A DNA stretch of 64,000 nucleotides from Rhizobium sp. G21. Its GTDB lineage: Bacteria > Pseudomonadota > Alphaproteobacteria > Rhizobiales > Rhizobiaceae. The position numbers were made by a program, and so were the translations under genes. Below the pieces are notes generated by a model that worked only from the letters and a program-made list of their open reading frames with translations, had not been told where the DNA came from and did not search any database. Each line of letters starts with the position of its first letter. The stretch's first letter is position 1. Shown piece by piece: positions 13,446-40,902 of the stretch. The stretch spans positions 1,612,001 through 1,676,000 of the forward strand of contig NZ_JACFXW010000001.1 of assembly GCF_014158035.1 (NCBI RefSeq), written 5' to 3'.

Positions 13446-14015
13446 TCAGTTGCCCACGCCGTAGACCGTTCCCTTGTCCGTCACGACGACCCATTTGCCC
13501 TCGCGCTGTTCGAGCGCCGCCACTTTGGACGCGTCCGGCAAAAGCGAGCCGGGCTGCACCAGGTAGACCCCGCCTTTGTCTTCGATCATGGCGCGACCAT
13601 TGGCGACATGGAGGACCTTGAACCTCATGGCGTCGCCCGGAAAGGCCTGGTCGAGAGCGGATGCGGCGCCGTCGTCGCCGATATCCTTGCCGATGTCGGG
13701 GACGGAGCCGGTGATGATCTTCTCGCCGGCCAGCGGGTCGCCGCTCTTCTCGTCGCGGTCCACGATCGCCGCTGGCGAGGGATTGACGATCGCCCGACCC
13801 GCCCATTCGGGAAGATCGCGGGACAATTCTTGCACCGCGACGCGTATGCCGAACTTGTCCTCGTTGAAGAAGACATACCAGGGGAAAAACGCTGCGGTCA
13901 TCGCGAGCGCTGCGCCCGACCAGCCAATGATGCGGTCCACGGTCCAGAAAGGCTTGCGCAACGCCTTCTTGGGCGGTTCGACGGGTTCGTCGGCGTCAAA
14001 ATCGGTCATTGTCAC
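13446..14015 (-). CDS. Uncharacterised membrane protein of the flagellar cluster
   Basis: 189-residue protein with a cytoplasmic N-terminus, one membrane helix (IIGWSGAALAMTAAFFPWYVFF, residues ~29-50) and an extracytoplasmic region containing ALRFKVLHVANGRAM-like and GVYLVQPGSLLP segments. A gene of unknown function stands between fliI and flgB in rhizobial flagellar clusters, and this one has that position. Its start overlaps the fliI stop by 4 nt, which points to a flagellar role. No known domain is recognised. Confidence 0.75.
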   Translation of the reverse strand: MTMTDFDADEPVEPPKKALRKPFWTVDRIIGWSGAALAMTAAFFPWYVFFNEDKFGIRVAVQELSRDLPEWAGRAIVNPSPAAIVDRDEKSGDPLAGEKIITGSVPDIGKDIGDDGAASALDQAFPGDAMRFKVLHVANGRAMIEDKGGVYLVQPGSLLPDASKVAALEQREGKWVVVTDKGTVYGVGN

Positions 14016-15409
14016 CTCGGGCGCCCGTTGGCGCCGTTACCCGGCTGGTTGGCGTTCTTCAGAGCCGAGGCCAGATCGGCGAAGGCGTCGCGCGCCGGCC
14101 TTTCCCCAGGGGTCTGCTTCAAAATTTCATAGATCGGCGGCACCTGCTTGACCGCCATGTCGAGGTCGGGATCCGCGCCGGCGCGATAGCCGCCGATCAG
14201 GCGAAGATCCCGCGTCTCCTCGAATTTATGGATGAGCGTCTTCAGGCGAGACACCAGTTTCTCCTCGTCCGGCGTCCACGCCTTGCGGGCGAGACGCGAG
14301 ATCGATGCGAGCGGATCGACGGGCGGGTACCGCCCCTCTTCCGCCAGGGCGCGATCGAGCACGATATGGCCGTCGAGAATGCCGCGGGTCGCATCGGCGA
14401 TCGGGTCGTTGTGGTTGTCGCCGTCGACGAGGATCGAGATGATCGCCGTGATCGCGCCGGCGCCTTCCTGTCCGGGGCCCGCCCGTTCGAGCAGTTTCGG
14501 CAGTTCGGTGAACACGGATGCGGGATAGCCGCGAGCCACAGGCGGCTCGCCCGACGCGGTCGCCACCTCGCGGATCGCATGCGCGAAACGGGTGACGCTG
14601 TCGACGATCAGCAGGACGTTCTTGCCTTCGTCGCGGAAGTGTTCGGCGATGGTGACGGCCGAGAGCGGCGCCATCTTGCGCAGCATCGGGCTCTCGTCCG
14701 ATGTCGCGACCACCGCCACGGATTTCTTTAGATGCGGCCCGAGCGTGTCTTCGATGAATTCGCGGACTTCACGGCCGCGTTCGCCGACCAGCGCGATGAC
14801 GACGCGATCGAAAGCGTCGGCGCGGGCGAGCATCGACAGAAGCGTCGACTTGCCGACGCCGGACCCTGCGAACACGCCGAGACGCTGACCGTGGCAGAGA
14901 GGCGCGAAGATGTCGATCGCCCGCACCCCGGTGCGAAACCCTTTCGAGACGCGCTGGCGCGTCATCGACGGCGGCGCCGTATTGGAGATGGAACGGGCGA
15001 CGCGACCTTGCGCGATCGGTCCGAGACCATCGATCGGTTCGCCGAGCGAATTGACCGTGCGGCCGCACCAGCTGTCGTCGGGATTGAGGCGGAACGCTCC
15101 GCGTTTCAGAATGATGTCGTCGATGCCGATGGGATCGCCGGGTTCGATGGGGCAGACATAGACGAGATCCGGCTCGACGCGAACCACCTCGCCGAGATGG
15201 ATGCCGGACTCGCTGCGATGGGCGACGAATTCTCCCAGGCGCACATGACGGGACAGCCCCGTCACGGTGTAGTGGCCCGCCGCGATGGTCTTGACGCGCC
15301 CGGCATGCGCCACCAGCGCGCCGGGCTGGTTGAAGCGCTGGAACAGGGCGCCGATGGCGGCCATTCGGTCGCCGGTGGTCCCCGTCTTGTCTTGCATCGC
15401 CCTATCCAT
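14012..15409 (-). CDS. fliI: FliI, flagellar export ATPase
   Basis: 465-residue F1-beta-like ATPase driving type III export. Walker A is GVFAGSGVGKSTLLSML (residues ~165-180), Walker B is within LLIVDSVTRFAHAI, and the family motif ATASGEPPVARGYPASVF is present. The N-terminal beta-barrel and C-terminal domain are complete and the length is normal. It follows flgF by 14 nt and overlaps the small membrane protein gene. The first codons (MDRAMQDKTG) could be replaced by the internal ATG a few residues on. Confidence 0.98.
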   Translation of the reverse strand: MDRAMQDKTGTTGDRMAAIGALFQRFNQPGALVAHAGRVKTIAAGHYTVTGLSRHVRLGEFVAHRSESGIHLGEVVRVEPDLVYVCPIEPGDPIGIDDIILKRGAFRLNPDDSWCGRTVNSLGEPIDGLGPIAQGRVARSISNTAPPSMTRQRVSKGFRTGVRAIDIFAPLCHGQRLGVFAGSGVGKSTLLSMLARADAFDRVVIALVGERGREVREFIEDTLGPHLKKSVAVVATSDESPMLRKMAPLSAVTIAEHFRDEGKNVLLIVDSVTRFAHAIREVATASGEPPVARGYPASVFTELPKLLERAGPGQEGAGAITAIISILVDGDNHNDPIADATRGILDGHIVLDRALAEEGRYPPVDPLASISRLARKAWTPDEEKLVSRLKTLIHKFEETRDLRLIGGYRAGADPDLDMAVKQVPPIYEILKQTPGERPARDAFADLASALKNANQPGNGANGRPR

Positions 15410-20992: not shown

Positions 20993-21458
20993 AAACGATG
21001 AAAAAAGCCCTTTCTCCATCGAACACGAAAAAATCGTGGCCGAGGCGTTGCGTCCCGTTGCAACAGAACTCAGGCTGATCGACGCTGCAGACCTCGTTTC
21101 GCTGCTGCGCTACGAGCGCTGGGGCAATATCGCGGATCTCGTCAATTCAGCGGCGGAACTCTATTTCCTGCCCGGCACAATCCGCTTCGGCATCGGCGGC
21201 AATTACGAGATGGACTGGAACAAGCTGCCGCAAATCTCGCTCGACCTCGAAATCATGGCCGACGCGGTGACCGTCTATGCGCAATTGTCGCTGACCGACG
21301 AGTTGGCGGGCATCGAGATCAACCATATCGCCTTTCATGAAGCGAATGACGATCCGGATCAGGATACGGCGCTCCTCGCCGAAAGCCTGCAGCGGGCACG
21401 CTTCATCACGCCGAAAATGCAGGCGCTCGAGGCGCATCCCACCAGCGCCCTGCAATAA
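20958..21458 (+). CDS. Uncharacterised protein between flhB and visR
   Basis: 166-residue acidic, soluble-looking protein with no signal peptide or membrane segment. The 3' part is orderly ([40 protein letters not shown]). The first ATG overlaps the repaired flhB by 35 nt; a GTG near 21036 is an alternative start. It is co-oriented with and directly behind flhB, and it converges with visR. I recognise no family, so a flagellar role is inferred from position only. Confidence 0.6.
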
Positions 21459-35692: not shown

Positions 35693-36700
35693 TCAGGCGG
35701 CCCGCCGCGCATCGGCGGGAAAAACCAGCCCGTAACGAACTTCGCTTTGCGATACGCTATATTCCGCTTTGCCGTTGACGGAGGCGGGAACGACCCGCTC
35801 GAGGATCGCGGTCCCAAGCCTGCGAACCGGCAGCGCAGAGTCCTGCCCTGCTTTGCGATAGGCCGCGTCCAGGGGTTCGCGCCAGGAAACACTGACGAAA
35901 TCGCGTCCCTCACGCTCCTGCATCGCGATCGTCACCACGATCGTCTGGCCCGCCGGCAGGAAGCTGCCGAAATTGATGGCGTTGATCAACAATTCGTGGA
36001 AGGCGAGGCCGAGATGCATGGTCACATTCGGAGACAGCAACAGGTTTTCACCTTCGAACGTGATCAGCTGTTGGCCGTTTGGAATATAGGCCGAGACCTG
36101 CTGCTCCAAGAGCTCGCGCGCAAATGCGCCGCGCCAGCCGGAATCCGTCACCAGATCCTGTGATCTCGACAGGGAGAAGATGCGCCCCCTGAGCTTCTGC
36201 ACATAGGCTTCGATCGAATCCGTATATTGCGAGGTCTGTGTGACGATGCTCTGGATGATCGCCAGAAGGTTTTTCGACCGATGGCTCACGTCCCGCAAGA
36301 GCGAATGAAGCACCTTTTCGCGACGTCGATCTTCGCCCCGATCGATGATTGTGGTGATGAACTGCATCTGCGCGCCATGGCCACTGAAGGCAAGCACCCG
36401 GAACTCGAAGACTCCGCCGTCTTCGAGCGTCACTTCGAGGATTTCGGTCTGACGGGTTTCGAGCGCACGCGACTTGGCGTCCGCCAATCGGGCGCCGATC
36501 TCCGCGCCGAAGACGGAACGATCGTCGGGCGCATCGTCGGATTTCAGGCGCCAGATATCCGGGAGGCCCGTGACACAGAGATAATTGTGGTCGCGGTCCT
36601 GCAAAATGAGGCTGGCGTTCATGTCGAGCAGGGCCGTGATGAAAAACGGGCCAAGCTCTCCCTCGTTGAGATCCTTGGCGTGCCAAAGGAATCGCCGCAC
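35693..36700 (-). CDS. HWE/HisKA_2-type sensor histidine kinase next to phyR
   Basis: 335-residue soluble kinase. The N-terminal ~130 residues look PAS-like (MNASLILQDRDHNYLCVTGL). The dimerisation box is LLRDVSHRSKNLLAIIQSIV (phospho-His in SHRSKN). The ATPase domain has FHELLINAINFG as N box; the G boxes are weak, as often in this family. It follows phyR on the same strand with a 90-nt gap, suggesting it phosphorylates PhyR, like PhyK in other alphaproteobacteria (inferred from context). Confidence 0.85.
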   Translation of the reverse strand: MRRFLWHAKDLNEGELGPFFITALLDMNASLILQDRDHNYLCVTGLPDIWRLKSDDAPDDRSVFGAEIGARLADAKSRALETRQTEILEVTLEDGGVFEFRVLAFSGHGAQMQFITTIIDRGEDRRREKVLHSLLRDVSHRSKNLLAIIQSIVTQTSQYTDSIEAYVQKLRGRIFSLSRSQDLVTDSGWRGAFARELLEQQVSAYIPNGQQLITFEGENLLLSPNVTMHLGLAFHELLINAINFGSFLPAGQTIVVTIAMQEREGRDFVSVSWREPLDAAYRKAGQDSALPVRRLGTAILERVVPASVNGKAEYSVSQSEVRYGLVFPADARRAA

Positions 36701-36790: not shown

Positions 36791-37600
36791 TCAGGCGGAC
36801 ATAGCCTGATAGGCCTTGTCGCCTTCATTGAAGAACAAGGCCTGACTGATCAATGCTTTCAGCATATCAGGATTATACGGCTTGGTGACAAGGAAAGTCG
36901 GTTCCGCACGCTCGCCTGTCAGCAAACGCTCGGGAAAAGCGGTGATGAAAATCACCGGAACGCTGGCGACCTTGAGAATGTCGTTGATCGCGTCGATGCC
37001 GGAGCTGCCGTCGGCGAGATGGATATCGGCGAGGATCATGCCCGGATTGCTGCGACGATAGAGATCGAGCGCCTCGGAATGCGTCCGGGCGATGCCGCTG
37101 ACGCTGTGGCCGAGATCGAGCACGATGTGCTCGATGTCGAGCGCGATGAGCGGCTCGTCCTCGATGATCATGATCTCGGTGGTGATTTGACGGGAGATCT
37201 CCTGTGTCGCTTCGTCGAGAAGACGCTTCACGTCCTCGATGCCGACAGCCAGGATCTCGGCCGCTTCGGAAAAGGAAAAGCCTTCCACGGAGACCAGAAG
37301 GAAGGCGTGGCGCGCCTGCGTCGGCACGGCGGACAGATTGGCGACCGCTTTCTTCTCCCAGGCGAAGGGCGAAATGGCCTGCGGCACGTCGACCTGAGCC
37401 GACTTGAGGATGCGGACAAAAAGCTTATACAGCGCCACACGGTCCGACGACGCTTCCGGGAAGATACTGAGATCGGCGATCAACGCCTCGAGCGTCGCGA
37501 CGACGACGAATGCATCGCCGGAGGTCTGAGATCCGGTGATCGCGCGCGAGTAACGGCGCAGGAACGGCAAATGGGCGGCCACGCGCTCGGTCAAGGTCAT
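36791..37600 (-). CDS. phyR: PhyR, anti-anti-sigma response regulator of the general stress response
   Basis: 269-residue protein with an N-terminal sigma-factor-like domain (residues ~1-130; VEGFSFSEAAEILAVGIEDV resembles sigma region 4) fused to a C-terminal receiver (EDEP acidic pocket at 147-150, phosphoacceptor Asp192 in ILADIHLADGSSG, KPYNPD with the conserved Lys). This order is diagnostic of PhyR: when phosphorylated it sequesters NepR and frees EcfG. nepR-ecfG lie 2.5 kb away. Confidence 0.96.
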   Translation of the reverse strand: MTLTERVAAHLPFLRRYSRAITGSQTSGDAFVVVATLEALIADLSIFPEASSDRVALYKLFVRILKSAQVDVPQAISPFAWEKKAVANLSAVPTQARHAFLLVSVEGFSFSEAAEILAVGIEDVKRLLDEATQEISRQITTEIMIIEDEPLIALDIEHIVLDLGHSVSGIARTHSEALDLYRRSNPGMILADIHLADGSSGIDAINDILKVASVPVIFITAFPERLLTGERAEPTFLVTKPYNPDMLKALISQALFFNEGDKAYQAMSA

Positions 37601-38122: not shown

Positions 38123-38449
38123 TCAGCCTCTGCGGGTCAGGAGAGCCGCGAGATAGCCGAGGCCGAGCGCCAGACCCACCGCCTGGAAAGGGCGAGCGCG
38201 TATTTCATCCTCCACGTCCCGGCCGAGAGAATAGGCTTCTTCACGGGCGTCGTTGAAAGCGCGGCGCGAAGCGGCGGCGGCATCGGCAGCCATGCGCTCG
38301 GCGCCGTCTCGGTAGGATTCCGCCTTTGCCGCGCCAAAGGCTGTCAGGGTCTTGGTCAACTCGGCGAGATCGCGCTTGAGATCGCCGATCTGCGCTTCGA
38401 GATCCTCGACGGTCGGCGCGTTTTTCTCATTCGCTTCGGAAAAAGCCAT
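38123..38449 (-). CDS. DUF883/ElaB-YqjD-like membrane-anchored protein
   Basis: 108-residue protein with a long amphipathic helix or coiled coil (VEDLEAQIGDLKRDLAELTK; AAAASRRAFNDAREEAYSLG) and a C-terminal glycine-rich membrane helix (FQAVGLALGLGYLAALLTRR). This is the ElaB/YqjD pattern of stress-induced inner-membrane proteins. It is the first gene of the DUF883-holin pair and is preceded by an EcfG-like motif at 38507-38531. Confidence 0.82.
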   Translation of the reverse strand: MAFSEANEKNAPTVEDLEAQIGDLKRDLAELTKTLTAFGAAKAESYRDGAERMAADAAAASRRAFNDAREEAYSLGRDVEDEIRARPFQAVGLALGLGYLAALLTRRG

Positions 38450-38506: not shown

Positions 38507-38531
38507 AATGCACGGACGGGGAAAAAGTTCC
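38507..38531 (-). promoter_or_regulatory. EcfG-like promoter of the DUF883-holin genes
   Basis: On the minus strand GGAAC, 16 nt, CATT, with the -10 ending 58 nt before the ATG at 38449. It lies just beyond the terminator at 38541-38583, so the operon has its own promoter independent of the upstream RNA. Confidence 0.55.
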
Positions 38532-38533
38532 CG

Positions 38534-38667
38534 AAAATAAAAAGGAGAGAACCATTCCGGCGGGAGGAAAGGTTCTCTCCTTTACGCGTCTGGCGCCTTC
38601 GGGGGGATGAAGGGGCGGATCCGGCGCCAGCTTCCGAATGGAGAGGAGGGGGCTCTGCATTCGACAT
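38534..38667 (-). ncRNA. Putative EcfG-dependent small RNA with three C-rich hairpin loops
   Basis: The interval begins about 7 nt below a perfect EcfG promoter and ends in a Rho-independent terminator. It holds three perfect hairpins. Hairpin 1 (38635-38663): stem CGAAUG/CAUUCG, 17-nt loop containing CCCCCUCCUCUC. Hairpin 2 (38590-38630): stem CUGGCGCC/GGCGCCAG, 25-nt loop with CCGCCCC and CCCCCC. Hairpin 3 (38541-38583): 13-bp stem, loop with CCUCCCG, followed by UUAUUUU. Length is about 130 nt with no ORF preceded by a ribosome-binding site. The loops could pair with Shine-Dalgarno sequences. The layout recalls rhizobial alpha-r14 (NfeR1) and Caulobacter GsrN RNAs from general knowledge; identity is not tested. 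The alternative is a leader/attenuator of the DUF883 operon. Confidence 0.55.
38541..38583 (-). terminator. Rho-independent terminator of the putative small RNA
   Basis: Perfect 13-bp inverted repeat AAAGGAGAGAACC / GGTTCTCTCCTTT with a 17-nt loop, followed on the minus strand by TTATTTT. It stands between two promoters pointing the same way. Confidence 0.8.
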
Positions 38668-38673
38668 CGGCAA

Positions 38674-38698
38674 AACGCCGCGTTCGACGTTTGGTTCC
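38674..38698 (-). promoter_or_regulatory. Perfect EcfG promoter reading into the putative small RNA
   Basis: On the minus strand GGAAC, 16 nt, CGTT: an exact match to the consensus of EcfG-type sigma factors. No start codon with a ribosome-binding site lies between it and the terminator at 38541-38583. Confidence 0.75.
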
Positions 38699-40026: not shown

Positions 40027-40056
40027 CCATTCAGTCGTTTAATTCTACGCCGGCAT

Positions 40057-40081
40057 GGAACCAATGTCCGCCGAGGGCGTT
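40057..40081 (+). promoter_or_regulatory. Perfect EcfG promoter of nepR-ecfG
   Basis: GGAAC, 16 nt, CGTT, exact consensus. It lies 48 nt upstream of the nepR ATG at 40130 and inside the longer open frame that begins at 40055. This rules out the longer start and predicts EcfG autoregulation. Confidence 0.78.
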
Positions 40082-40129
40082 CCCGCGAAGACCAGACGAC
40101 AATCAGCGCAACCATGCGAGCCCGCACAT

Positions 40130-40333
40130 ATGAACCATGATGAATCAAACGGAATGGGGGATCCCGGCGTGCCGGGTCCGTTCGGCGAGATCCCCAAGAA
40201 GCTCAAGGAGTATTACGACTCCCTGCAGGAAGAAGCCATTCCGGCCCGCTTTCTCGACTTGCTCGAACAGCTGGACAAGGCGGAGCGTGTCCACGCCGCC
40301 GGCAAACAGTCCCTCCTGACTGGGGAAAGCTGA
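40130..40333 (+). CDS. nepR: NepR, anti-sigma factor of EcfG
   Basis: 67-residue anti-sigma factor with the conserved core (GEIPKKLKEYYDSLQEE then IPARFLDLLEQLDKAE), which forms the two helices binding EcfG or PhyR. I chose ATG 40130 because the promoter motif lies at 40057-40081 and NepR proteins are about 60 residues long. The stop is 2 nt before the ecfG ATG, so both are co-transcribed and translationally linked. Confidence 0.92.
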   Translation: MNHDESNGMGDPGVPGPFGEIPKKLKEYYDSLQEEAIPARFLDLLEQLDKAERVHAAGKQSLLTGES

Positions 40334-40335
40334 TC

Positions 40336-40902
40336 ATGACGCAAGACGAAGACAGCATCGAAAGAGATTTCAAGCGTACGATGCTCGCTTGCCTCGGCAG
40401 CTTGCGCGCTTTCGGCGTCTCGCTCACCGGCCGCCACGATCGAGCTGACGATCTCGTCCAGGACACGATCATGAAGGCTTGGGCCAAGAAGAGCTCGTTT
40501 GAGCCGGGCACCAATATGAAGGCCTGGCTGTTCACTATCCTGCGCAACGAGTTCTACAGCCAGATTCGCAAGAGCGGTCGCGAAATCCAGGATTCGGACG
40601 GCTTTTACACCGAACAGCTGTCGACCCATCCGGGACAGTATGGCGCGTTGGATCTGCAGGACTTCAAGGCGGCGCTCGAAAAGCTGCCCGACGACCAGCG
40701 TGAGGCGATCATTCTCATCGGCGCCTCCGGCTTCTCCTACGAGGAAGCGGCCGAGATTTGCCAATGCGCCATCGGCACGATCAAGAGCCGCGTCAACCGC
40801 GCGCGCAATCGGCTTGCCGAATTGCTGGCGGTGGAAGGGGACCGCGAATATGGTCCGGACTCCAGAGCACTCGCCGTGACGGGCCGCACCTTCGTGGGGT
40901 GA
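40336..40902 (+). CDS. ecfG: EcfG, general-stress ECF sigma factor
   Basis: 188-residue sigma factor of the ECF15 (EcfG) type. Region 2: RHDRADDLVQDTIMKAWAKK with NMKAWLFTILRNEFYSQIRK. Region 4: LPDDQREAIILIGASGFSYE and AIGTIKSRVNRARNRLAELL. It is directed to GGAAC/CGTT promoters, of which several are found nearby. It is held inactive by NepR and released by PhyR-P. Confidence 0.96.
   Translation: MTQDEDSIERDFKRTMLACLGSLRAFGVSLTGRHDRADDLVQDTIMKAWAKKSSFEPGTNMKAWLFTILRNEFYSQIRKSGREIQDSDGFYTEQLSTHPGQYGALDLQDFKAALEKLPDDQREAIILIGASGFSYEEAAEICQCAIGTIKSRVNRARNRLAELLAVEGDREYGPDSRALAVTGRTFVG

What the first reader, a model, noticed from the sequence alone, without database searches (positions are those of the whole stretch)
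38534..38698. Putative EcfG-driven small RNA with three consecutive anti-Shine-Dalgarno hairpin loops
A perfect EcfG promoter (minus, 38674-38698) drives no gene directly: within about 130 nt lies a strong Rho-independent terminator (13-bp stem, TTATTTT), and behind it a second EcfG-like promoter serves the DUF883 gene. The short interval folds by eye into three perfect-stem hairpins, each with a C-rich loop (CCCCCUCCUCUC; CCGCCCC plus CCCCCC; CCUCCCG). Such loops can pair with GGAGG-type ribosome-binding sites. Known alphaproteobacterial RNAs with related logic are GsrN (Caulobacter, sigT-dependent, C-rich loop) and the alpha-r14/NfeR1 family (three hairpins with anti-SD loops in rhizobia). 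An sRNA encoded inside the phyR/nepR-ecfG locus would be a post-transcriptional arm of the stress response.
Basis: partly seen in the sequence, partly recalled or inferred. Interest (0 to 1): 0.85.

Follow-up and report, generated by a model that had tools for sequence, protein, structure and literature searches.

The report
Stress-sigma small RNA with C-rich hairpins
Beside the general-stress-response genes of a Rhizobium-related bacterium lies a stretch of about 130 bases, with counterparts at the same place in 7 of the 8 other genomes of its genus examined, that carries the stress sigma factor's promoter motif, folds by computation into three hairpins with C-rich loops, and is predicted to make a small RNA that would adjust translation of other genes under stress, probably a relative of the known Rhizobium etli RNA ReC64.

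Summary
In detail: an EcfG motif GGAAC-N16-CGTT (38698-38674, minus), a three-hairpin RNA of about 132 nt (z -5.7), a 13-bp terminator stem with U-run, then a second EcfG-like promoter for the DUF883 gene. The motif alone is at chance level in this window; conservation makes the case. In 8 of 9 genus genomes (own included) the place holds an EcfG-type motif and a three-hairpin, C-looped RNA with compensatory stem changes; R. setariae has decayed. Similar RNAs with the same promoter type lie in or near the stress locus of Neorhizobium, Pseudorhizobium, Rhizobium, Ensifer and Ahrensia (24 of 86 sources in all). It is not alpha-r14: 22 bits (cut-off 58.8), no hit genome-wide at E 1, and the loops share a C-tract (34 of 34) but never CCUCCUCCC (0 of 34; 7 of 7 own alpha-r14 matches read). 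Published kin: R. etli ReC64 (EcfG-dependent, start mapped, salt-induced) and 'GsrN-like' RNAs predicted at rhizobial stress loci in 2018. So a new member of a known kind. Most likely action, untested: C-tract loops pairing with G-rich ribosome-binding regions. No target is established; phyR is a weak lead.

The parts
38674..38698 (-). EcfG-type promoter motif GGAAC-N16-CGTT of the small RNA
   Evidence: pattern match; a GGAAC-N16-[CT][AG]TT motif stands at a similar distance before hairpin 1 in 7 other genus members
38534..38667 (-). predicted small RNA (start inferred from the promoter, end from the U-run)
   Evidence: fold z -5.70; only full-length match of covariance model R1 in its own genome at E 0.01 or better
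38634..38664 (-). hairpin 1, loop CCCCCUC (38646-38652)
   Evidence: predicted fold; double changes in 9 of 11 pairs on the model-fitted alignment A5
38590..38630 (-). hairpin 2, large C-rich loop region (CCGCCCCUUC ... CCCCCC)
   Evidence: predicted fold; 4 of 8 pairs with double changes on A5
38541..38583 (-). hairpin 3 = intrinsic terminator, 13-bp outer stem, loop UCCCGCC
   Evidence: predicted fold; near-palindrome, also matched by the model on the + strand
38534..38540 (-). U-run UUAUUUU after the terminator stem
   Evidence: sequence
38507..38531 (-). second EcfG-type promoter motif GGAAC-N16-CATT, for the DUF883 gene
   Evidence: pattern match; counterparts in G002, G004 and G006
38123..38449 (-). 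DUF883-type protein gene downstream
   Evidence: Pfam DUF883_C, E 2e-4, 21.4 bits, below its 27-bit cut-off
36791..37600 (-). phyR, with its own EcfG-type motif at 37667-37643
   Evidence: Pfam PhyR_sigma2, PhyR_sigma-like, Response_reg; motif
35693..36700 (-). HWE histidine kinase gene
   Evidence: Pfam HWE_HK
40136..40333 (+). nepR (likely true start; the ORF-list start at 40055 overlaps its EcfG-type motif 40057-40081)
   Evidence: Pfam NepR; motif position
40336..40902 (+). ecfG-type sigma factor gene
   Evidence: Pfam Sigma70_r2, Sigma70_r4_2; found beside nepR and phyR in relatives

Best explanation
It is a stretch with an EcfG promoter motif, three predicted C-looped hairpins and a terminator-like end, with counterparts at this locus in 7 of the 8 other genus genomes examined, and it likely makes a trans-acting small RNA under EcfG control that would pair through its C-tract loops with G-rich ribosome-binding regions of target mRNAs. 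When stress activates PhyR and frees EcfG from NepR, EcfG would transcribe the RNA together with nepR-ecfG, phyR and the DUF883 gene, all of which carry the same promoter type here (shown as motifs only). The RNA is predicted to stop at hairpin 3 before the DUF883 promoter. Stems have changed in pairs while C-tracts stayed (shown by comparison), as expected if the loops are the working parts and the stems hold them out. Whether pairing lowers or raises translation, and of which mRNAs, is not known; blocking of start sites is the most likely mode, by analogy with alpha-r14, while GsrN shows that activation is possible. Its promoter and design are those of R. etli ReC64 and Caulobacter GsrN, and it is probably the local counterpart of ReC64.
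For: EcfG motif, three-hairpin fold and terminator in the window. 8 of 9 genus genomes, own included, carry an EcfG-type motif plus a three-hairpin C-looped RNA between nepR-ecfG and phyR. 18 of 428 EcfG-type sites against 4 of 1642 control sites. 19 of 20 RNAs fold with z from -4.4 to -9.9. Double changes on the model-fitted alignment A5: 15 of 36 pairs, 35 cells, 0 of 500 shuffles; on alignments not fitted to a structure: A6 9 of 30 pairs (13 of 500 shuffles as high; 15 cells, 0 of 500), A7 8 of 42 pairs (1 of 500; 14 cells, 0 of 500). Model R1, which holds no promoter, finds RNAs in Ahrensia, Neorhizobium, a Phyllobacteriaceae MAG and G106 that have an EcfG-type motif at the right distance. 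A DNA search with the Rhizobium-type RNA hit 13 of 297 genomes, 9 of the 13 with an EcfG-type motif upstream. Exposed CCCC in 34 of 34 RNAs. Literature, passages only: ReC64 has an EcfG1-dependent promoter fusion and a 5'-RACE start at the motif (PMC3892343), a Northern band (PMC2881028) and is raised by salt (PMC4167512).
Against: I saw no transcript data for this genome. The promoter motif alone is at chance level in the window. The plain MAFFT alignment of the four closest RNAs shows only 2 double-change pairs (67 of 500 shuffles as high); the fourth RNA looks misaligned there. On 'further pair types' A6 and A7 do not exceed their shuffles (488 and 259 of 500). G001 (R. setariae) has lost motif and fold (z -0.04, 89 of 200 shuffles as good). 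R1 over seven named relatives' whole genomes finds only the Ahrensia RNA; the Rhizobium and Ensifer RNAs are not found by it, and the Neorhizobium galegae hit (25.9 bits over 570 kb) is not reported genome-wide, so one descent for all is not shown by sequence. No RNA of this kind was found in 61 of the 86 sources, the Devosia loci among them. Target tests are negative or weak: loops against 62 window leaders gave a median of -12.25 against -12.87 kcal/mol for shuffled loops and -11.15 for inner gene regions; the best hit, fliI, is not kept outside the three closest genomes; katG leaders show no significant pairing. ReC64 was reported as 88 nt plus a larger band, shorter than the 102-140 nt predicted for three-hairpin RNAs here. 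One paper predicted SigA/RpoH motifs, not EcfG, upstream of ReC64 (PMC4167512).
Confidence: 0.72

Rival explanations
1. It is a diverged alpha-r14 (NfeR1) paralogue that has come under an EcfG promoter, acting as a strict anti-Shine-Dalgarno RNA.
For: Full-length alpha-r14 alignment at 22.2 bits for the window, 24.2 and 22.4 for two relatives and 36.6 bits (E 9e-5) for the G106 RNA; three hairpins with C-rich loops and variable stems, as described for alpha-r14 (PMC7143759).
Against: All scores are below the 58.8-bit cut-off; 6 of 9 relatives tested have no alpha-r14 match at E 1 or better, and the window RNA is not among the 12 matches at E 1 or better in its own genome. No RNA of the set has CCUCCUCCC (0 of 34), while the 7 alpha-r14 matches read from the same genome (5 of them over the cut-off) all do and have no EcfG-like motif within 60 nt upstream. 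R1 does not match four alpha-r14-bearing loci of the genus.
Confidence: 0.1
2. It is not a separate RNA but the 5' leader or attenuator of the DUF883 mRNA, with hairpin 3 as a conditional terminator.
For: It lies directly upstream of DUF883 on the same strand.
Against: DUF883 has its own EcfG-type motif after the terminator. In the Rhizobium, Neorhizobium and Ensifer loci mapped, what lies directly downstream is the oppositely read kinase or phyR gene, so a leader function cannot be the shared one there.
Confidence: 0.08
3. It codes for a small protein.
For: An ATG at 38667 opens a frame of 103 codons that runs through the RNA.
Against: The frame runs past the terminator, the ATG is not kept in G002, G004 or G006, and stems change in pairs, which fits RNA structure rather than a reading frame.
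Confidence: 0.03
4. It is only a two-way transcription terminator or insulator, and the upstream hairpins do nothing.
For: Hairpin 3 is nearly palindromic and matches the model on both strands.
Against: Hairpins 1 and 2 keep their structure through double changes, and the neighbour GSDH is read away from the site.
Confidence: 0.03

Closest known systems
ReC64 of Rhizobium etli
   Same: Small RNA in the phyR-ecfG1 region with an EcfG consensus promoter; RNAs at the corresponding place in other Rhizobium species (L024, L027, L029, L036; L035) have three hairpins with C-rich loops.
   Different: ReC64 lies downstream of phyR-tcrY, the window RNA upstream of DUF883-phyR. Reported length 88 nt against about 132 nt. 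Reported as conserved in two close strains. The CFN42 sequence itself was not compared here.
GsrN of Caulobacter and GsrN-like RNAs predicted in Rhizobiaceae (PMC5869019)
   Same: EcfG-family promoter, usually near the stress locus, exposed C-tract loop used for pairing.
   Different: GsrN is about 100 nt, cut to a 5' isoform, with one key 5' C-rich loop and katG as target; the window RNA has three C-looped hairpins and no supported katG pairing. BLASTn kin of GsrN were limited to Caulobacteraceae in that paper.
alpha-r14 / NfeR1 (RF02344), also the SmelA075 group
   Same: Three hairpins, variable stems, C-rich loops.
   Different: Loop motif CCUCCUCCC, sigma-70 promoter described, several copies per genome; the window RNA scores below the cut-off, has other loops and an EcfG motif.

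Membership tests
alpha-r14 (RF02344) | Rfam gathering score of 58.8 bits | tested here: not met
   22.2 bits in the window, no genome-wide match at E 1; best relative 36.6 bits
alpha-r14 (RF02344) | three hairpins with variable stems | tested here: met
alpha-r14 (RF02344) | CCUCCUCCC in the loops | tested here: not met
   0 of 34 stress-locus RNAs, 7 of 7 own alpha-r14 matches read
alpha-r14 (RF02344) | sigma-70 promoter CTTAGAC-N17-CTATAT (PMC10746234) | tested here: inconclusive
   The RNA has an EcfG motif, but my scan of 60 nt did not find the published motif at the 7 own alpha-r14 matches either
GsrN / GsrN-like | EcfG-type promoter | tested here: met
   motif only
GsrN / GsrN-like | near ecfG/nepR/phyR | tested here: met
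   between nepR-ecfG and phyR
GsrN / GsrN-like | exposed C-tract loop | tested here: met
   part of the set of 34 had been picked by C-rich loops
GsrN / GsrN-like | sequence similarity to Caulobacter GsrN | not tested
   the GsrN sequence was not fetched
GsrN / GsrN-like | pairs with the katG leader | tested here: not met
   no run of four G, GAGGGG or GGGGAG in the leader in 8 of 8 katG loci read (G008 not read; one GGGGG lies inside the G003 coding part); best pairing equalled by 17 of 100 shuffled leaders in G000 and G004, 23 in G002, 85 to 100 in four others
GsrN / GsrN-like | cut into a stable 5' isoform | not testable with these tools
   needs a Northern blot
ReC64 | EcfG motif at the start site | tested here: met
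   motif in the window, start site itself untested; ReC64 by 5' RACE in PMC3892343
ReC64 | located downstream of phyR-tcrY | tested here: not met
   window RNA lies upstream of DUF883-phyR
ReC64 | sequence or model match to ReC64 | tested here: inconclusive
   CFN42 sequence not held; R1 gives no hit to the Rhizobium-type RNAs, but 25.9 bits, E 1.7e-4 over 570 kb, to the Neorhizobium galegae RNA beyond the kinase gene, a hit not reported genome-wide
ReC64 | EcfG-dependent expression | not testable with these tools
   needs an ecfG mutant

The most novel reading that the evidence does not exclude
A stress-locus RNA family runs through the Rhizobiaceae, defined by architecture and promoter rather than sequence (EcfG motif, mostly three hairpins of which two or three show C-tract loops, hypervariable stems, no Rfam match in the loci searched), and in the window's genus it closes a feedback loop by pairing its CCCCUUC loop with the GAAGGGG ribosome-binding site of phyR, the switch that turns EcfG on.
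Probability: 0.15. Interest if true: 0.72.

Novelty: new member of a known kind. Interest (0 to 1): 0.5.

Why it matters
EcfG regulons are well mapped for transcription, but in the papers I saw their RNA arm in rhizobia is nearly untouched: ReC64 has a mapped promoter and no described function. The comparison suggests that ReC64 is not a peculiarity of a few strains but one case of a design kept at the stress locus in several genera, distinct from alpha-r14. That gives a testable definition (EcfG motif, hairpins with C-tract loops), a list of genomes, and loops to mutate.

Tried and rejected
Rfam at curated cut-offs: no match in the window or in ten relatives' loci. alpha-r14 membership: rejected on score and loops. 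A sub-threshold match of two relatives to ncS035 (31.4 and 29.1 bits, cut-off 79) was not followed; I take it as chance or convergence of C-rich hairpins.

MAFFT alignment of the four closest RNAs (A3) appears to misalign G006 and gives weak pair statistics; the alignment of seven (A1) also looks misaligned and was not used for counts. The first Ensifer/Rhizobium alignment (A2) was cut short at its 3' ends by my error and replaced by A7.

Targets: 62 leaders of greedy gene calls in the window, no excess over shuffled loops. fliI, best single hit (-29.4 kcal/mol with a long loop segment; -18.8 with the exposed loop, 32 of 300 shuffles as good in the window, 7 in G004, 8 in G002), is not kept in the six more distant genomes: 51 to 157 of 300 in five of them by other pairings, 0 of 300 in G001, whose RNA is the decayed one. 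katG: not supported. nepR, ecfG, DUF883: no consistent pairing over 8 genomes, though ecfG has 5 and 6 of 200 shuffles in G002 and G004 and nepR 17 and 16 of 200 in G008 and G007. phyR: CCCCUUC:GAAGGGG in the window, G002 and G004 (9, 8 and 8 of 200 shuffles as good), G005 8 of 200, the other four 31 to 135 of 200; against 53 window leaders phyR stands at percentile 0.94 for the window and on average 0.71 over 21 loci, range 0.04 to 0.96, loci not independent. Kept as a lead only.

R1 hits without an EcfG-type motif upstream (L034 twice, L069, L087, L012 at 4942, L081 twice, L026 at 8316; G076, G145, G089) are taken as chance; L010, also without motif, is the decayed copy at the same place. 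The upstream of the weak window hit at 21364 (12.8 bits) was not checked.

Of the 86 sources, 18 came out of the fixed scan; L012, L013, L016, L044, L052 and L133 were added by hand or by model, 24 in all; L010 is decayed; in the other 61 I found none. Among these, L017, L018, L019, L076, L081, L084 and L046, L051, L054, L059, L083, L085 were looked at with looser rules; the rest, mostly Devosia, had the fixed scan only or also the R1 search, and L018 and L085 are cut-off contigs. L010 was left out of the 34 RNAs. SmelC601 of S. meliloti (RpoE2-dependent, 127 nt) may be the Sinorhizobium counterpart, but I could not map it to the locus.

Full report
What is there. On the minus strand, between a GSDH gene (read away from it) and a DUF883-type gene, lies GGAAC-N16-CGTT (38698-38674), then about 132 nt that fold into three hairpins, the last a 13-bp-stem terminator followed by UUAUUUU, then GGAAC-N16-CATT (38531-38507), which ends 57 nt before the DUF883 start. 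phyR (EcfG-type motif at 37667-37643) and an HWE kinase follow downstream; nepR and ecfG are read the other way, behind the motif at 40057-40081. So four transcription units of this locus carry EcfG-type motifs. The fold of 38667-38536 is -54.1 kcal/mol, z -5.70.

Is it more than chance? The motif alone is not: 2 in the window against 0.56 expected, 12 of 100 shuffles as high. The combination is. I took 86 sources holding phyR loci: a 10-kb part of the window, 80 named loci and 5 regions of genus genomes. I asked how often a GGAAC-N16/17-[CT][AG]TT site is followed within about 200 nt by a terminator-like hairpin and at least two C-rich hairpin loops: 18 of 428 sites. The same question for 40 draws of permuted motifs gave 4 of 1642 sites; several motifs were drawn twice, among them the two that hit, so the 4 are two distinct places, both by position beside RNAs already in the 18.

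Conservation in the genus. All 9 genomes of the genus (own included) have phyR. Eight have an EcfG-type motif followed directly by a three-hairpin RNA with three C-rich loops between nepR-ecfG and phyR: G000, G002, G003, G004, G005, G006, G007, G008 (the -10 part is CGTT in G000, G002, G004, G007 and G008, TGTT in G003 and G005, CATT in G006). The ninth, G001 (R. setariae, L010), has a damaged motif and no significant fold (z -0.04). Sequence alone finds only 4 of 101 genomes, own included, because the stems are replaced: the outer stem of hairpin 1 is UCGAAUG...CAUUCGG in the window and GCAAGCGC...GUGCUUGC in G006, while an inner stem and a C loop remain.

Covariation. On the model-fitted alignment A5 of seven RNAs, 96.3% of cells pair, 15 of 36 pairs have double changes, 35 cells, none of 500 shuffles as high, and sliding the partners drops pairing to 49-53%. 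That alignment leans to the structure. On alignments made without structure: six Neorhizobium-type RNAs (A6) 9 of 30 pairs, 13 of 500 shuffles as high, 15 cells, 0 of 500; seven Rhizobium/Ensifer RNAs (A7) 8 of 42 pairs, 1 of 500, 14 cells, 0 of 500; on 'further pair types' neither exceeds its shuffles (488 and 259 of 500). The unfitted alignment of the four closest (A3) is weak: 2 pairs, 67 of 500. Twenty RNAs folded singly: 19 with z from -4.4 to -9.9, one (L010) without signal.

Spread. Model R1, built from four genus members without the promoter, was run over 47 chosen sources. I checked the upstream of 15 of its more distant full-length matches: L044 (Ahrensia kielensis), L026 at 12108 (a Phyllobacteriaceae MAG), L011, L012 at 8208 and L014 (Neorhizobium) and L132 have an EcfG-type motif at the right distance; the nine others, L010 among them, have none. 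In 151 relatives R1 gave 11 genomes at E 0.01 or better; the four outside the genus are G106, which has the motif and, by my reading of its ORFs, PhyR, NepR, EcfG and an HWE kinase within 5 kb, and three without the motif. Over the whole genomes of seven named relatives R1 found only the Ahrensia RNA, so it does not reach the Rhizobium and Ensifer RNAs, and unity of descent rests on design, promoter and place. A DNA search with the Rhizobium-type RNA gave 13 of 297 genomes; 9 of the 13 have an EcfG-type motif upstream; the other 4 are matches of 24 to 32 bases, one of them elsewhere in the window's own genome. Neorhizobium and Pseudorhizobium copies: L011 to L014 and L016, with Rhizobium sp. 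FY34 L015. In the Rhizobium, Neorhizobium and FY34 loci mapped the RNA stands beyond the kinase gene, in Ensifer beyond phyR, read towards it, so it cannot be a leader of a downstream gene there. In Ahrensia it lies about 5 kb from the phyR start. In all, 24 of 86 sources hold such an RNA.

Loops. I collected 34 RNAs (25 from loci, 9; L010 left out; part of them had been picked by C-rich loops, so the count leans that way). An exposed CCCC is in 34 of 34, CCCCUC in 26, CCUCC in 17, CCUCCUCCC in 0. In the predicted folds 30 of 34 have three hairpins, one four and three two; three loops are C-rich in 22, two in 10, one in 2. The seven alpha-r14 matches that I fetched from the window's genome (five over the cut-off) have CCUCCUCCC in 7 of 7 and CCCCC in 0, and no EcfG-like motif within 60 nt upstream in 7 of 7. 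Rfam gives the window 22.2 bits for alpha-r14 against a cut-off of 58.8; nine relatives give at most 36.6; in the whole genome alpha-r14 has 12 matches at E 1 or better, none of them at the window RNA. So the design resembles alpha-r14, and the loops are of another type.

Known kin. Passages of PMC3892343: ReC64 of R. etli lies downstream of phyR-tcrY, has the EcfG consensus, a 5'-RACE start in agreement with it, a gusA fusion abolished in an ecfG1 mutant and activated in E. coli by either EcfG. Passages of PMC2881028: Northern detection in stationary phase, plus an unexplained larger band. Passages of PMC4167512: raised after saline shock, though that paper predicts SigA/RpoH motifs. Section 14 and passages of PMC5869019: GsrN-like RNAs predicted at the stress loci of R. 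etli, S. meliloti, Agrobacterium radiobacter and Brucella abortus; GsrN is modelled to use six tandem cytosines to recognise G-rich sites and activates katG. The loops of alpha-r14 and its sigma-70 promoter are from passages of PMC7143759 and PMC10746234 and section 21 of PMC3927594. The listings of searches and the passages I opened showed no paper that describes the three-hairpin C-tract design at rhizobial stress loci; figures, supplements and most subscription journals were not seen, so it may be drawn in Figure 9C of PMC5869019, whose legend mentions a 5' loop, a small hairpin and a stem loop.

How it works. Shown: motif, computed fold, terminator, conservation, paired stem changes, kept C-tracts. 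Inferred: transcription by EcfG under stress, action in trans through the loops, pairing with G-rich ribosome-binding regions. Target tests gave no firm result. The phyR leader is the most interesting lead: its GAAGGGG is exactly complementary to CCCCUUC of hairpin 2 in the window and two relatives, with 9, 8 and 8 of 200 shuffled loops as good, percentile 0.94 among 53 window leaders, but 0.71 on average over 21 loci.

Verdict. By sequence evidence a real, conserved, EcfG-associated small RNA gene, ordinary in kind (ReC64/GsrN-like) and new as a member, with a shared architecture that I did not find described. In checking I lowered the alpha-r14 rival from 0.12 to 0.10 because.

Noticed in passing
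window 40055-40136: The ORF-list start of nepR (40055) overlaps its own EcfG-type motif (40057-40081); the true start is more likely the ATG at 40136.
   Followed up: partly
window 47380-47356 (minus): Another GGAAC-N16-CATT motif with an ATG about 60 nt downstream: a possible further EcfG target gene.
   Followed up: no
window 38541-38583 (plus strand): The terminator hairpin is nearly palindromic and is matched by the RNA model on both strands, so it may also stop transcription coming from the other side.
   Followed up: no
L010 4500-4640: R. setariae keeps remnants of the RNA at the same place, with a damaged promoter and no significant fold: a natural loss.
   Followed up: partly
L162 77-170 (G106:C7): A two-hairpin version with EcfG motif near phyR, nepR and ecfG scores 36.6 bits for alpha-r14, the highest of the set: a possible link between the two RNA types.
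   Followed up: partly
L154, L155: Two relatives' RNAs match Burkholderia ncS035 below its cut-off (31.4 and 29.1 of 79 bits).
   Followed up: no
window 14012-15409 (minus): The leader of a fliI-type ATPase gene (ATP-synt_ab, T3SS_ATPase_C) has GGGCGGAU, complementary to AUCCGCCC in hairpin 2; kept in G004, with one change in G002, not in the other six.
   Followed up: yes
G000 contigs C1, C2, C4 (L135-L141): The genome has 12 alpha-r14 matches at E 1 or better, five over the cut-off; the seven read all have CCUCCUCCC loops.
   Followed up: partly
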